Origin: Syntrophomonas sp.
Lineage (GTDB): Bacteria; Bacillota; Syntrophomonadia; Syntrophomonadales; Syntrophomonadaceae
NCBI GenBank assembly: GCA_016841875.1
Contig: JAENYG010000005.1
Span: forward strand, 1 to 64,000
Reading direction: 5' to 3'
DNA length: 64,000 nucleotides
Under the pieces are notes generated by a model that worked only from the letters and a program-made list of their open reading frames with translations, ran no database searches and was not told the origin of the DNA. The translations under genes and the position numbers were made by a program. Each line of letters begins with the position of its first letter. Within the stretch, counting starts at the first letter, position 1. Below are positions 13,735 through 26,495 of this stretch, in pieces.

Positions 13735-14700
13735 ATGAAATGTCAGAATTGTGCCCGGGAAATCTCAGAGAGCAATAAATTCTGCCCCTTTTGCGGCAGC
13801 CCGCAGAATAGACCGGCAGCACCTGTACCGCAGCCGGCACCGGCAGCTAGATGTCCCGGCTGCGGTGGAGAAGTGAAAGCCGGTCAGGCTTTCTGCATGA
13901 ACTGCGGTACTGGCCTGACGGTGACGCAAACGGCATCTCCATCGGTTTCCCCGCCCCAACCTAAGACCCCGCCGCCGATAGTTCCTGCCGGACCTCGTCC
14001 AACCGGAGGGTCAGCACCTATGCAGCAGATAGCATCGGCCGCAAGATGTCCAGGCTGCGGTGGGGAAATGAAAGCCGGTCAGGCGTTCTGCATGAACTGT
14101 GGTACGCGTATGCCTGTAATGGGCACCTCAGCACCACCGGTCTCGGGTGCAGGACAGCCGTATGCCGCCCAGAATCAACCGCCCTATTACCAGGCTCCGG
14201 CTGCAGCAGCAGCAACCTATGGCAGTCAACCTTATCCTGCCGCAGGATCCCAACCATATCCCGGTCGGGTGCTTAAAGGAAGCGGGGTTGGAATTCGCTT
14301 TCTGGCTACCCTGCTGGACGGGATAATTATGTCTATAGTAATGGGAGTATTTATGGGAGGTATGCTGGCCTCCCAGGCCAGCCAGATGGCTTATACCGGG
14401 ACTATTGATTATGGTATGTATGTAATCCCCACAATTATTGGTTTGGCCTATTTTATTTTAATGGAAGGTCTGGTCGGGGGAACGGTGGGTAAACTGGCCT
14501 GTGGTTTGCGGGTAGTAACTAAAAATGGTGAAAAATGTGGGATAGGTAAATCAGTAATTCGAAACCTGATGAGAATCGTGGATGGGTTTTTCGGTTATCT
14601 GGTAGGAGCCATATGTGTGTGGGTTTCAGCCGATAATCAGCGACTGGGTGATATGGTAGCCGGAACCCTGGTAGTAAAGAAACAGGATTTAATGGGATAA
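13735..14700 (+). CDS. Zinc-ribbon and RDD domain membrane protein
   Basis: The 321-residue protein has three zinc ribbons of the CxxC-x10-CxxC type: CQNCAREISESNKFCPFCG at residues 3-21, and two nearly identical ribbons CPGCGGE..KAGQAFCMNCG about 63 residues apart, joined by Pro-rich linkers. A Gln/Pro/Tyr/Ala-rich linker leads to a C-terminal RDD domain with three membrane segments (GVGIRFLATLLDGIIMSIVM, then GGTVGKLACGLRVV and RNLMRIVDGFFGYL). RDD proteins are small membrane proteins, some with transport roles, here with function unknown. The start follows GGGAGAGG. It is a single gene followed by a strong terminator. Confidence 0.85.
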   Translation: MKCQNCAREISESNKFCPFCGSPQNRPAAPVPQPAPAARCPGCGGEVKAGQAFCMNCGTGLTVTQTASPSVSPPQPKTPPPIVPAGPRPTGGSAPMQQIASAARCPGCGGEMKAGQAFCMNCGTRMPVMGTSAPPVSGAGQPYAAQNQPPYYQAPAAAAATYGSQPYPAAGSQPYPGRVLKGSGVGIRFLATLLDGIIMSIVMGVFMGGMLASQASQMAYTGTIDYGMYVIPTIIGLAYFILMEGLVGGTVGKLACGLRVVTKNGEKCGIGKSVIRNLMRIVDGFFGYLVGAICVWVSADNQRLGDMVAGTLVVKKQDLMG

Positions 14701-22796: not shown

Positions 22797-25508
22797 TTAC
22801 TGCCTTTCGATTTCATAGACCAGATCATCAAGAATATACAGGTAAATTACGTCACCCGAAGTTAAAGAGCTTATACCTATTTCTGATGTTCCATCATGTA
22901 TATAGCAAGATGAGGCCAGTTCATAATAAGTGTAGCTGGTTGAATATTGAGTTATATATACTTTATCCTCATTTAAGTTGGTATTGGCAAAAGATCCTGT
23001 AACTTTATCCATCAGGTTGAAGACGGTGTCCCCATCGGAGTCTTCCTGGATTTTAACCCGGTCATCAGTACTTAAGGCGCTGATCGAAGTATAAGTTTTG
23101 CTGCCATCGATTACCGAATATCCGGAATTAAATTTGTAGTTATAATACTGGCCATCAAAAGCAGATATGCTGACAGTGTTAGAATAAGTGTTAATGGCAG
23201 CTATAGAACCAATAACTACCTCAGTCAGTTCTACTTCAGACAGGGTATTGCCTGAATAAGTGCATTTTATGGTATCACCTTCGTCAAAGTCATCGATGTC
23301 AGGTGATGAAATACCAGGAACAACTAAACTGACTCCATCAGTAAGATAAATATTTATCAGGTCTCCATCTTCATCTTCTACTTTAAGTCGGGAGTAACTC
23401 TCGGATATGCTGTATACTTCATAGAAATAGGATACGGCTACATCGATATCTGTTATCACATCATCTTCATCAAGAGTCAATTTTACGTCATCACCCTTAT
23501 CGATATCCTCCAGTTCTGGACTGCTGACGCCTTTAATATTTACATCTACATCGTTGGATATTACATATGATTCCACATCACTTTCGGCTGTTTCAATCGA
23601 AAGTATTCTGCGAGATTCATTCAAAGTTAATATCGTACCGCTGACCCGGCTATCTACCAGCAGGTAGATAATTTTTCCATTCAATAACTCAAAACTAGCC
23701 TGCATGCCTTTCTCCAGATCAGATAAATCACAGTCGCTTTCATCATCTATCACTATTTCTGCTGCTGCGTTTATTTCAAAGGTGACTAAACTGCTTTGAT
23801 CCTGGGCCTCGCTGGTATCGAATATAATCATATTATCATCTTCATCTACTGCTATTATGGTACCGCTGTAGTCGGTGTGGGAATCGCTGCTGGAAAGGCT
23901 TATAGCAGTTATTATACCGCTTTCTATGCTGAGGTCCACCTCATCGTCTACATTCAGTTCTGAGAGAAGAATACTGCCTCCATTTACTGTAGATATAATC
24001 GCATCATCAGCTACCTGGAAAGTATAGAGAGTACCTTCTGAATCAACAATCAGCAGACGCTTGGATGCGGAAACGACTGCTATGGTACCAGATAGATCTA
24101 ATTCCTGCTGAGCGGATATCAGAGCAATTTCACTGATGTATGACCCATCTGTAGTTACCTTTACTTCATCGCCTATCTGCAGATCATCTATACTGGGAAA
24201 TCTTACTCCATCTATAATAACTGCTAAAGCAGAATCATAAAGGTAAGATTTGAAACTACCAGAAGAGTTTTTGAGAACAATCAGCTGTTGATCCGGGACA
24301 ATATCATATATGATGCCCGTAACGCCTTCGGTATCACTAATAACAATAGTAGTGATTATCCCCTGGTTATTCAGGGTCAATTCTACCTGAGTGCCAGAAA
24401 TAATGCTGGAAAAATCACAGCTCTGCCCGGTCGTGTACAAACAAAGGGTTGAACTATCCCAGGTCTGGGTATGGACTACATCCAGACTATCTTTGATAAT
24501 GATAAGATTTTGACTGCTTATAGTATGCAGTACAGTTCCGGTTAAAGTACTGCTTGCTGATCCTTCAGCCAAAACAGCCAGGTATTGCAGCTGTGAATCA
24601 CTACTGATGAGCTTGACCTTATCACCGATCTTTAACTCGGCTGAAGTACAAAAAGAGGAATCTTCGCCAAATATAGCCGTATTGTTCTGAAAATAAAAGT
24701 TGCGTGCAGTCCCATTTATGGAAGCCGTTAATATAGAATCAGAAATGTTCAGAATTGTACCTTCCATTACATTACTATCTAAACTTAAATAAGGCTCGCT
24801 TTTACTGAGCATACTGGCAGCCTGAGCTCTGGTTACTGCCTGCAGGGGTTTGAAAGAATTATCTGGAAAACCGGTTAGAATCTCATATTTGACCGCAGTA
24901 TTTATATAGCCAAGGGCCCATAGCGGTACGTCAGCATAATCTGAAAAGCTGCTGGTTTGCTTGGCCAATACAGCGACTTCTGATTCTTTGTCCATCATTC
25001 GTACTATTAACTGACTCATCCAGGCTCGGCTGGCCGCTGAATCCGAGTTAAAGGCATTTTCAGATGGAACAATAAGCCCCTGCTGTATCGCAAATAGAAG
25101 CTCTTTTTTAAATTTAGTTTTAGCCCAATCAGGAACTGAGATGGTCAGAGGTTGACTTGTGTCAACAGCAGCAATCTCATCGTCTGCGTCCATATTTCTT
25201 ACCGCCATCAATAAAGCTTCCAGCTGAGTTACCTGTTTATCCGGGCTGAATGAACCATCATTGTAACCGGTTATTACATTTCTAATATTAAGTTTAGTAA
25301 TATATTTGACAGCCCAATGGGTGTTGCTCACATCCGAAAAGGGATTGGGTGATACTGCAGCTGTGCTGCAGGGAAGGTTGATGCTTAAATGGAATATTGA
25401 TAGCACAAATATAAAAACAAAAAATCGCGCAACCCTTCTTATAGGAATCTTATTTAACACGCTACCCGCTCCTTTAATAAATTTTTCCCAGGTTATATTC
25501 CCCTTCAA
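22797..25508 (-). CDS. Large SLH-anchored surface protein with tandem beta modules
   Basis: The 903-residue protein has a signal peptide (FFVFIFVLSIFHLSINLPC). About residues 55-250 hold SLH repeats (FSDVSNTHWAVKYITKLNIR, GYNDGSFSPDKQVTQLEALL, FPDNSFKPLQAVTRAQAASM) for wall attachment. The remaining 650 residues are about nine modules of 65-80 residues, each opening with a strand like GTILNISDS, GTVLHTISS, GIIYDIVPD, GTIAVVSAS, GTIIAVDED or GTILTLNES, and containing a IGDEVKV-like strand. They are Ser/Asp/Ile-rich, without catalytic residues or cysteine patterns. It is likely a structural S-layer or sheath protein. It is transcribed alone. Confidence 0.82.
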   Translation of the reverse strand: MKGNITWEKFIKGAGSVLNKIPIRRVARFFVFIFVLSIFHLSINLPCSTAAVSPNPFSDVSNTHWAVKYITKLNIRNVITGYNDGSFSPDKQVTQLEALLMAVRNMDADDEIAAVDTSQPLTISVPDWAKTKFKKELLFAIQQGLIVPSENAFNSDSAASRAWMSQLIVRMMDKESEVAVLAKQTSSFSDYADVPLWALGYINTAVKYEILTGFPDNSFKPLQAVTRAQAASMLSKSEPYLSLDSNVMEGTILNISDSILTASINGTARNFYFQNNTAIFGEDSSFCTSAELKIGDKVKLISSDSQLQYLAVLAEGSASSTLTGTVLHTISSQNLIIIKDSLDVVHTQTWDSSTLCLYTTGQSCDFSSIISGTQVELTLNNQGIITTIVISDTEGVTGIIYDIVPDQQLIVLKNSSGSFKSYLYDSALAVIIDGVRFPSIDDLQIGDEVKVTTDGSYISEIALISAQQELDLSGTIAVVSASKRLLIVDSEGTLYTFQVADDAIISTVNGGSILLSELNVDDEVDLSIESGIITAISLSSSDSHTDYSGTIIAVDEDDNMIIFDTSEAQDQSSLVTFEINAAAEIVIDDESDCDLSDLEKGMQASFELLNGKIIYLLVDSRVSGTILTLNESRRILSIETAESDVESYVISNDVDVNIKGVSSPELEDIDKGDDVKLTLDEDDVITDIDVAVSYFYEVYSISESYSRLKVEDEDGDLINIYLTDGVSLVVPGISSPDIDDFDEGDTIKCTYSGNTLSEVELTEVVIGSIAAINTYSNTVSISAFDGQYYNYKFNSGYSVIDGSKTYTSISALSTDDRVKIQEDSDGDTVFNLMDKVTGSFANTNLNEDKVYITQYSTSYTYYELASSCYIHDGTSEIGISSLTSGDVIYLYILDDLVYEIERQ

Positions 25509-25730: not shown

Positions 25731-25936
25731 CGAAAAAAGGCCATCCCTTTTGGGATGGCCTCAGCTTGTCGACAAAGTCGGCAAGCTGCAGGCCGATGAC
25801 AGAAGGGAAGATCAAGGCATAAGAAAAGCCCGAGATTGAGGCGTACTTGAGTACGTTGATTGAACGGCTTTTTGAAATAACGCAGAGATTCGTTTCTGTC
25901 ATCGGTCTGAGGCCATCCCTTTTGGGATGGCCTCTA
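25731..25936 (-). repeat. Highly structured repeat element, possible non-coding RNA
   Basis: Five helices fill this stretch. Two near-identical GGCCATCCC-tttt-GGGATGGCC hairpins bound it (25738-25761 and 25909-25934). Next to the first, 25762-25773 pairs with 25777-25788 (12 pairs, AAA loop). A long stem pairs 25789-25804 with 25894-25909 (16 pairs, one G-U) and encloses AAAAGCC/GGCTTTT (25824-25830 with 25866-25872) and a GCGTAC-ttga-GTACGT hairpin at 25841-25856. On the minus strand the last hairpin is followed by T6, so it ends like an intrinsic terminator. Frames through it are short and follow the palindromes. It could be a structured RNA or a palindromic mobile repeat. I recall similar sequences in other Firmicutes but cannot name a family. 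Confidence 0.65.
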
Positions 25937-25973: not shown

Positions 25974-26495
25974 CTATGCTTTTTCTACTTCCGGATAATC
26001 AACTCCGAAGGTATCAACACTTACTTTAAGCATTTTTTGATCTTCCAGAGGTCTATCCATGCGGTTTCTTTGAGTATTTACTATGGTATCTACCTGGTCC
26101 ATCCCATCAATGACCCTGCCAAACGATGCGTATTGTCCATCCAGATGAGGGGAGGGAGCGACCATGATAAAAAACTGCGATCCTGCTGAATTTGGTGCGG
26201 CGGTTCTGGCCATGGAGAGAACCCCGCGGTCGTGTTTAAGATCGTTCTTAAAACCGTTGCCGGAGAATTCGCCTTTAATAGAATAACCAGGCCCACCCAT
26301 GCCTGAACCTTCCGGGCAACCACCCTGAATCATAAAACCGGGTATCACCCGGTGAAAAATAATCCCATCATAATAGCCTTTATTGACCAGAGATATAAAA
26401 TTATTTACTGTATTAGGGGCAATCTCTGGATATAATTCGGCTTTAAGTATACCTCCATTTTCTAATTCGATCGTCACCAGTGGATTTGTGCTCAT
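25974..26495 (-). CDS. Peptidyl-prolyl cis-trans isomerase (cyclophilin)
   Basis: The 173-residue protein is a complete cyclophilin: IIFHRVIPGFMIQGG with the catalytic Arg and Phe, GVLSMARTAAPNSAGSQFFI with the Gln and Phe of the active site, and SPHLDGQYASFGRVIDG. It catalyses proline isomerisation during protein folding. With no signal peptide it is cytoplasmic. AGGAAG precedes the ATG. It is a single gene between the structured repeat and the HD-GYP-type gene. Confidence 0.93.
   Translation of the reverse strand: MSTNPLVTIELENGGILKAELYPEIAPNTVNNFISLVNKGYYDGIIFHRVIPGFMIQGGCPEGSGMGGPGYSIKGEFSGNGFKNDLKHDRGVLSMARTAAPNSAGSQFFIMVAPSPHLDGQYASFGRVIDGMDQVDTIVNTQRNRMDRPLEDQKMLKVSVDTFGVDYPEVEKA

What the first reader, a model, noticed from the sequence alone, without database searches (positions are those of the whole stretch)
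25731..25936. Palindrome-rich element of about 205 bases with five helices and a minus-strand terminator
Nearly every base pairs: two almost identical GGCCATCCC hairpins bound the element, and a 12-pair hairpin, a 16-pair long stem and an inner stem-loop fill it. On the minus strand it ends hairpin-T6. Such density is typical of a structured RNA or of a palindromic mobile repeat. The small frames through it look like by-products of the palindromes. It lies between an S-layer gene and a cyclophilin gene.
Basis: partly seen in the sequence, partly recalled or inferred. Interest (0 to 1): 0.7.

Follow-up and report, generated by a model that had tools for sequence, protein, structure and literature searches.

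The report
Miniature transposon that duplicates transcription terminators
The palindrome-rich stretch is a 148-base mobile element that jumped into the terminator hairpin at the end of a cyclophilin gene and left one whole copy of that hairpin on each side; dozens of sister copies do the same at other terminators, and one strand of the element is conserved as a folded structure.

Summary
They are two things in one. The two outer GGCCATCCC hairpins are not part of the element: they are two identical 24-bp copies of the cyclophilin gene's intrinsic terminator. Between them lies a 148-bp element (25762-25909), with 61 BLAST matches in this genome. At other loci the flanking hairpins differ between loci but match each other: 40 of 64 copies have the duplication, against 1 of 400 mismatched controls. 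Three congeneric loci carry a single hairpin and no element. So the element targets terminators and duplicates the entire hairpin. Its left end is 18/18 identical to the end of an IS1182-family insertion sequence, and 57 of 77 related IS copies duplicate whole hairpins the same way. Best explanation: a MITE of that IS1182 subgroup. Beyond a passive palindrome, compensatory changes are abundant (22 pairs against 8.1 in shuffles) and strand-specific: Watson-Crick to G-T 59 events, to A-C 12, although opposite transitions are balanced. One strand is thus constrained as a folded single strand, RNA or ssDNA. The element's own function, if any, and the transposase that moves it here are not established.

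The parts
25733..25738 (-). T-tract (A6 on +) of the cyclophilin terminator, kept only beside the distal hairpin copy
   Evidence: sequence
25738..25761 (.). left copy of the duplicated terminator hairpin AGGCCATCCCTTTTGGGATGGCCT
25762..25909 (+). the mobile element itself, from CAG to CTG
   Evidence: boundaries from direct repeats at many loci
25762..25788 (+). left-end hairpin CAGCTTGTCGACAAAGTCGGCAAGCTG; first 18 nt identical to the left end of an IS1182-family IS in G050
25789..25809 (+). left arm of the long stem (terminal inverted repeat CAGGCCGATGACAGAAGGGAA)
25889..25909 (-). right arm of the long stem (reads CAGACCGATGACAGAAACGAA on -)
25834..25863 (+). conserved core GATTGAGGCGTACTTGAGTACGTTGATTGA: apical hairpin with a 6x6 internal loop GATTGA/GATTGA
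25910..25933 (.). right copy of the duplicated terminator hairpin, without a T-tract for the cyclophilin transcript
25974..26495 (-). cyclophilin-type peptidyl-prolyl isomerase gene, whose terminator was the target
22797..25508 (-). SLH-domain (S-layer type) protein gene on the other side, transcribed away from the element

Best explanation
A non-autonomous miniature transposon (MITE) of a hairpin-targeting subgroup of the IS1182 family. SHOWN by sequence: it sits inside intrinsic terminators; its ends are CAG...CTG; insertion duplicates the complete target hairpin, so the duplication length (about 16-45 bp) follows the hairpin; its left end equals that of autonomous IS1182-type elements that also duplicate whole hairpins. 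INFERRED mechanism: the target palindrome is recognised extruded as a cruciform. [quoted passage not shown] A host gene keeps a terminator hairpin on each side of the insert, which would make insertion cheap. Further SHOWN: the strand carrying GATTGAGGCGTAC is constrained as a folded single strand. INFERRED: that fold matters as RNA (3' UTR, extra terminator) or as ssDNA; which one is open.
For: 61 BLAST matches in the genome. The flanking hairpins are locus-specific yet the same on both sides; 40 of 64 copies score >=12 against 1 of 400 mismatched pairs. Three single-hairpin empty sites occur in congeners. In G050 an intact IS1182 transposase lies between 24-bp hairpin copies, and its left end CAGCTTGTCGACAAAGTC is identical to this element's. 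The NF033551 IS1182 model scores 474 and 450 bits against a cut-off of 270. 57 of 77 related IS copies from Bacillaceae, Enterococcus, Selenomonadales and others have ends CAGACTGT(A/C)GACAAA...TTTTGTC(T/G)ACA(A/G)TCTG or close variants and whole-hairpin duplications. Covariation. Strand asymmetry: WC to G-T 59 events, to A-C 12, p 1.3e-8, with C>T 46 / G>A 40 and A>G 38 / T>C 32 overall. The + strand folds better in 66 of 66 copies.
Against: No intact transposase of this subgroup was found in this genome; its IS1182 copies belong to another subgroup with ends GAGACCACTGAAAAAG. The right end CAGRCCGATGACAAAAG matches the IS end only partly (about 13 of 17 by eye). Subfamily B has other terminal repeats, and most B copies show no duplication. 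24 of 64 copies show none, presumably decayed. No transposition was observed. The cruciform step is inference.
Confidence: 0.87

Rival explanations
1. A genuine non-coding RNA gene or cis-regulatory RNA that happens to be repeated; mobility is secondary.
For: Compensatory changes far above shuffles, strand-specific wobble tolerance, invariant unpaired core across genera, weaker covariance-model hits in other families of the phylum with different terminal repeats.
Against: Clean element ends, whole-hairpin duplications and empty sites show insertion. Orientation to neighbouring genes is mixed (15 co-directional, 6 opposite, 7 other), and the window copy is antisense to the cyclophilin transcript. 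No Rfam family.
Confidence: 0.25
2. The strand-specific fold acts as single-stranded DNA, for example an intermediate or a transposase-bound hairpin during mobilisation.
For: The G-T tolerance fits ssDNA as well as RNA. Arms, inner stem and apical hairpin all show it.
Against: IS1182 transposases are DDE enzymes, for which a single-stranded intermediate is not established.
Confidence: 0.3
3. A passive palindromic repeat whose arms stay matched by hairpin-templated repair, without selection.
For: Quasi-palindrome correction is a known process (own knowledge) and would restore pairing: 53 mismatch-to-WC events.
Against: Correction acting on both strands does not predict 59 G-T against 12 A-C with balanced transitions.
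Confidence: 0.12
4. Hairpin duplications arose by slippage or tandem duplication of terminators rather than by insertion.
For: Tandem terminator-element-terminator-element arrays exist at C23, C34, C88 and C90.
Against: Unrelated terminators all carry the same element between identical copies, and empty sites have a single hairpin.
Confidence: 0.03

Closest known systems
IS1182-family insertion sequences (NCBIfam NF033551; Pfam PF05598 + PF13751)
   Same: End sequence, hairpin-shaped left end, terminator targets, whole-hairpin duplication
   Different: No transposase gene; 148 bp instead of about 1.5-1.9 kb; carries a conserved internal fold not seen in the IS copies inspected
IS1272 / TnSha1 of staphylococci (IS1182 family; PMC5678879, PMC4923244)
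   Same: Targets terminator hairpins with little sequence preference
   Different: IS1272 replaces or partly deletes the hairpin and leaves no duplication; here the whole hairpin is duplicated, the outcome Wan et al. drew as hypothetical pathway b
SPRITE, BOX and RUP repeats of Streptococcus pneumoniae (PMC3049150, PMC10969869)
   Same: Small multicopy palindromic elements, some terminator-like, nested in one another
   Different: No terminator duplication is described in the passages of the review read here; sequence relation not tested

Membership tests
MITE | short, no transposase gene, multicopy | tested here: met
   148 bp, 61 BLAST matches in the genome; no long ORF within
MITE | terminal inverted repeats | tested here: met
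   21-bp arms, 95% of cells paired in 40 copies
MITE | target-site duplication on insertion | tested here: met
   40 of 64 copies against 1 of 400 controls; three empty sites
IS1182-family derivative | ends matching an autonomous IS1182 element | tested here: met
   left end 18/18 identical to the IS in G050; right end only about 13 of 17 by eye
IS1182-family derivative | same target and duplication mode as the autonomous element | tested here: met
   57 of 77 IS copies duplicate whole hairpins
IS1182-family derivative | mobilised by that transposase | not testable with these tools
   no intact subgroup transposase found in the genome; needs an experiment
IS1272-type hairpin replacement | target hairpin lost, no duplication | tested here: not met
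   hairpin present on both sides
Rfam RNA family | score above a family's gathering cut-off | tested here: not met
   no hit; best is Phe_leader 22.2 bits against 55
REP/RAYT elements | partner Y1 (HUH) transposase RAYT | not tested
   not searched, since the IS1182 link was found

The most novel reading that the evidence does not exclude
The conserved thing is a strand-specific folded core (CAAGGC...GAGGCGTAC-N4-GTACGTYGA...AACGCAG) that rides on different terminal repeats in many families of this phylum. It would be a large, undescribed class of mobile structured RNA (or ssDNA), of which the window copy is one terminator-targeting branch.
Probability: 0.35. Interest if true: 0.82.

Novelty: new variant of a known kind. 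Interest (0 to 1): 0.6.

Why it matters
It gives dozens of natural examples, with empty sites, of a transposition outcome that had been drawn only as a hypothetical branch in the papers found here: duplication of a whole stem-loop. Variable duplication length set by hairpin length points to recognition of DNA shape (a four-way junction) rather than sequence. Insertion that doubles a terminator instead of destroying it would be a low-cost niche for a transposon. The strand-specific constraint raises a directly testable question: is the fold an RNA or a ssDNA?

Tried and rejected
Rfam scans at gathering and relaxed thresholds: nothing. Own-genome IS1182 copies as the partner: rejected, other ends. 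IS-sized pairs of the MITE ends in the genome: none among the pattern hits. Viral contigs and plasmids: no match. Literature searches for the core string or for terminator-duplicating MITEs: nothing relevant. Mutational strand bias as the cause of the G-T excess: rejected, transitions are balanced.

Full report
WHAT IS THERE. The stretch 25731-25936 folds far better than shuffles on both strands. Comparison with other copies divides it into a target and an insert. The outer hairpins (25738-25761 and 25910-25933) are identical 24-mers. Between them lies a 148-bp element running from CAG to CTG (25762-25909): a 27-nt left-end hairpin, then a long stem of two 21-nt arms, an inner stem and an apical hairpin.

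MULTICOPY. The region has 61 BLAST matches in its own genome. In a sample of 61 genomes, 20 had matches, mostly in the same bacterial family. A 30-base core pattern (up to 2 mismatches) occurs 40 times in G000, 32 in G002, 19 in G008, 14 in G001 and 11 in G035.

TARGET DUPLICATION. At each intact locus the element lies between two copies of one hairpin, and that hairpin differs from locus to locus. In 64 copies from several genomes, 40 show a direct repeat scoring 12 or more, against 1 of 400 when left and right flanks come from different loci. In 36 copies the right repeat starts within 0-2 bases of the element's end, and lengths run mostly from 16 to 45 bp. I built the predicted empty sites (one hairpin between the flanks) and searched two congeners. 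Three loci come out as near-continuous matches with a single hairpin and no element: L291 against L017, L292 against L005, L293 against L004. For the window locus itself, G001 and G003 have other, unoccupied hairpins behind the cyclophilin gene. G002 carries a subfamily-B element in the equivalent GGCCATCCC hairpin.

THE PARTNER. Among PF13751 transposases of relatives, one in G050 (L084) lies between two copies of AGCAGAAGTGATTTCACTTCTGCT and begins CAGCTTGTCGACAAAGTC, identical over 18 bases to this element's left end; it ends ...TTTGTCTACAGTCTG. In G045 (L085) the 3' end is alike and abuts a terminator. Both proteins belong to the IS1182 family. A scan with their alignment returned 80 loci. 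Of 77 that could be examined, I count 57 with a whole-hairpin duplication, mostly 19-36 bp long, flanking ends of the type CAGACTGTAGACAAA...TTTTGTCTACAATCTG, for example many copies each in Neobacillus drentensis and Bacillus sp. OV166. The left end of these IS is itself a hairpin, as in the MITE. No intact transposase of this subgroup was found in the window's genome, so the element may be stranded there or moved by an enzyme I did not recognise.

MECHANISM. DDE transposases usually cut with a fixed stagger (own knowledge). A stagger that follows the hairpin length is easiest to explain if the hairpin is extruded as a cruciform, so that the two attacked phosphates sit together at the junction (inference). 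For IS1272, Wan et al. (PMC5678879) and Furi et al. (PMC4923244) describe hairpin targets that are replaced or partly deleted without duplication. Wan et al. sketch attack at the 5' feet as a branch that would duplicate the whole stem-loop. The elements here match that branch. Wan et al. also note that an earlier review mentions palindromic targets for some IS1182 members without detailed data, so target preference as such is not new.

THE FOLD. On 40 subfamily-A copies 95% of cells pair, 22 pairs have changes on both sides (shuffles 8.1, 0 of 500 as high), and 64 cells change on both sides (shuffles 14.3). A more diverse set of 31 gives 133 such cells against 48.3. Excluding pairs whose consensus is a wobble, G-T outnumbers A-C 90 to 10 in A2 and 53 to 12 in A3. 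Copies are related, so I counted changes on a tree: Watson-Crick to G-T 59, to A-C 12 (p 1.3e-8), while opposite transitions are balanced overall (C>T 46, G>A 40; A>G 38, T>C 32), and 53 changes restore a pair. The + strand folds more stably in all 66 A and B copies, on average by 14.0 and 12.3 kcal/mol. This is constraint on one strand as a folded single strand. It does not say RNA or ssDNA. Genes next to the element run with the + strand on both sides in 15 of 28 cases and against it in 6, so co-transcription is common but not required; the window copy is antisense to the cyclophilin gene.

BREADTH. A covariance model from 31 copies finds strong matches in related genera, and weaker ones (39-66 bits) in other families of the phylum with different terminal repeats but a similar core. 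These weak matches were chosen by the model itself, so their fold preference (22 of 26) is partly circular. I treat the phylum-wide class as a lead, not a result.

VERDICT. A MITE of a hairpin-duplicating IS1182 subgroup: new variant of a known kind. The target duplication and the ends are shown; mobilisation in trans and cruciform recognition are inferred; the role of the folded strand is open.

Noticed in passing
L026, L065, L067, L071, L074 (G000 C88, C32, C42, C15, C88): A second repeat family of about 50 bp (CCCTTACAGGACCACAATTTGGGCTCGC...GCTCGAAATAATAAAGAAGC) is nested at AAGC sites in both arms of many copies. Pattern hits also lie where no copy of this element was found, three of them in tandem at 51-bp spacing at C57:3158-3279.
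   Followed up: partly
G000 C23:20348-20739, C34:142781-143107, C88:26746-27180, C90:73564-73847: Tandem arrays terminator-element-terminator-element-terminator, some with assembly gaps.
   Followed up: partly
L226 (G002:C49): The orthologous cyclophilin terminator in a congener carries an element with other terminal repeats (subfamily B) at the same hairpin edge: independent insertion or replacement.
   Followed up: partly
L031, L032, L089, L095, L111: Another IS1182 subgroup with ends GAGACCACTGAAAAAG sits in palindromes of the GGGGACGGTTC type.
   Followed up: no
L081, L226, L295: Other hairpin sequences (for example GGGACATTCC...) are inserted in the apical loop of the element, so its own hairpins seem to be targets.
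   Followed up: no
L320-L345: Weak model matches across the phylum share CAAGGC...GAGGCGTAC-N4-GTACGTYGA...AACGCAG with different terminal repeats such as AGGCTGTTCAAAAA.
   Followed up: partly
window 13817-13949 and 14012-14144: Two 133-nt direct repeats, 77% identical, 195 bases apart.
   Followed up: no
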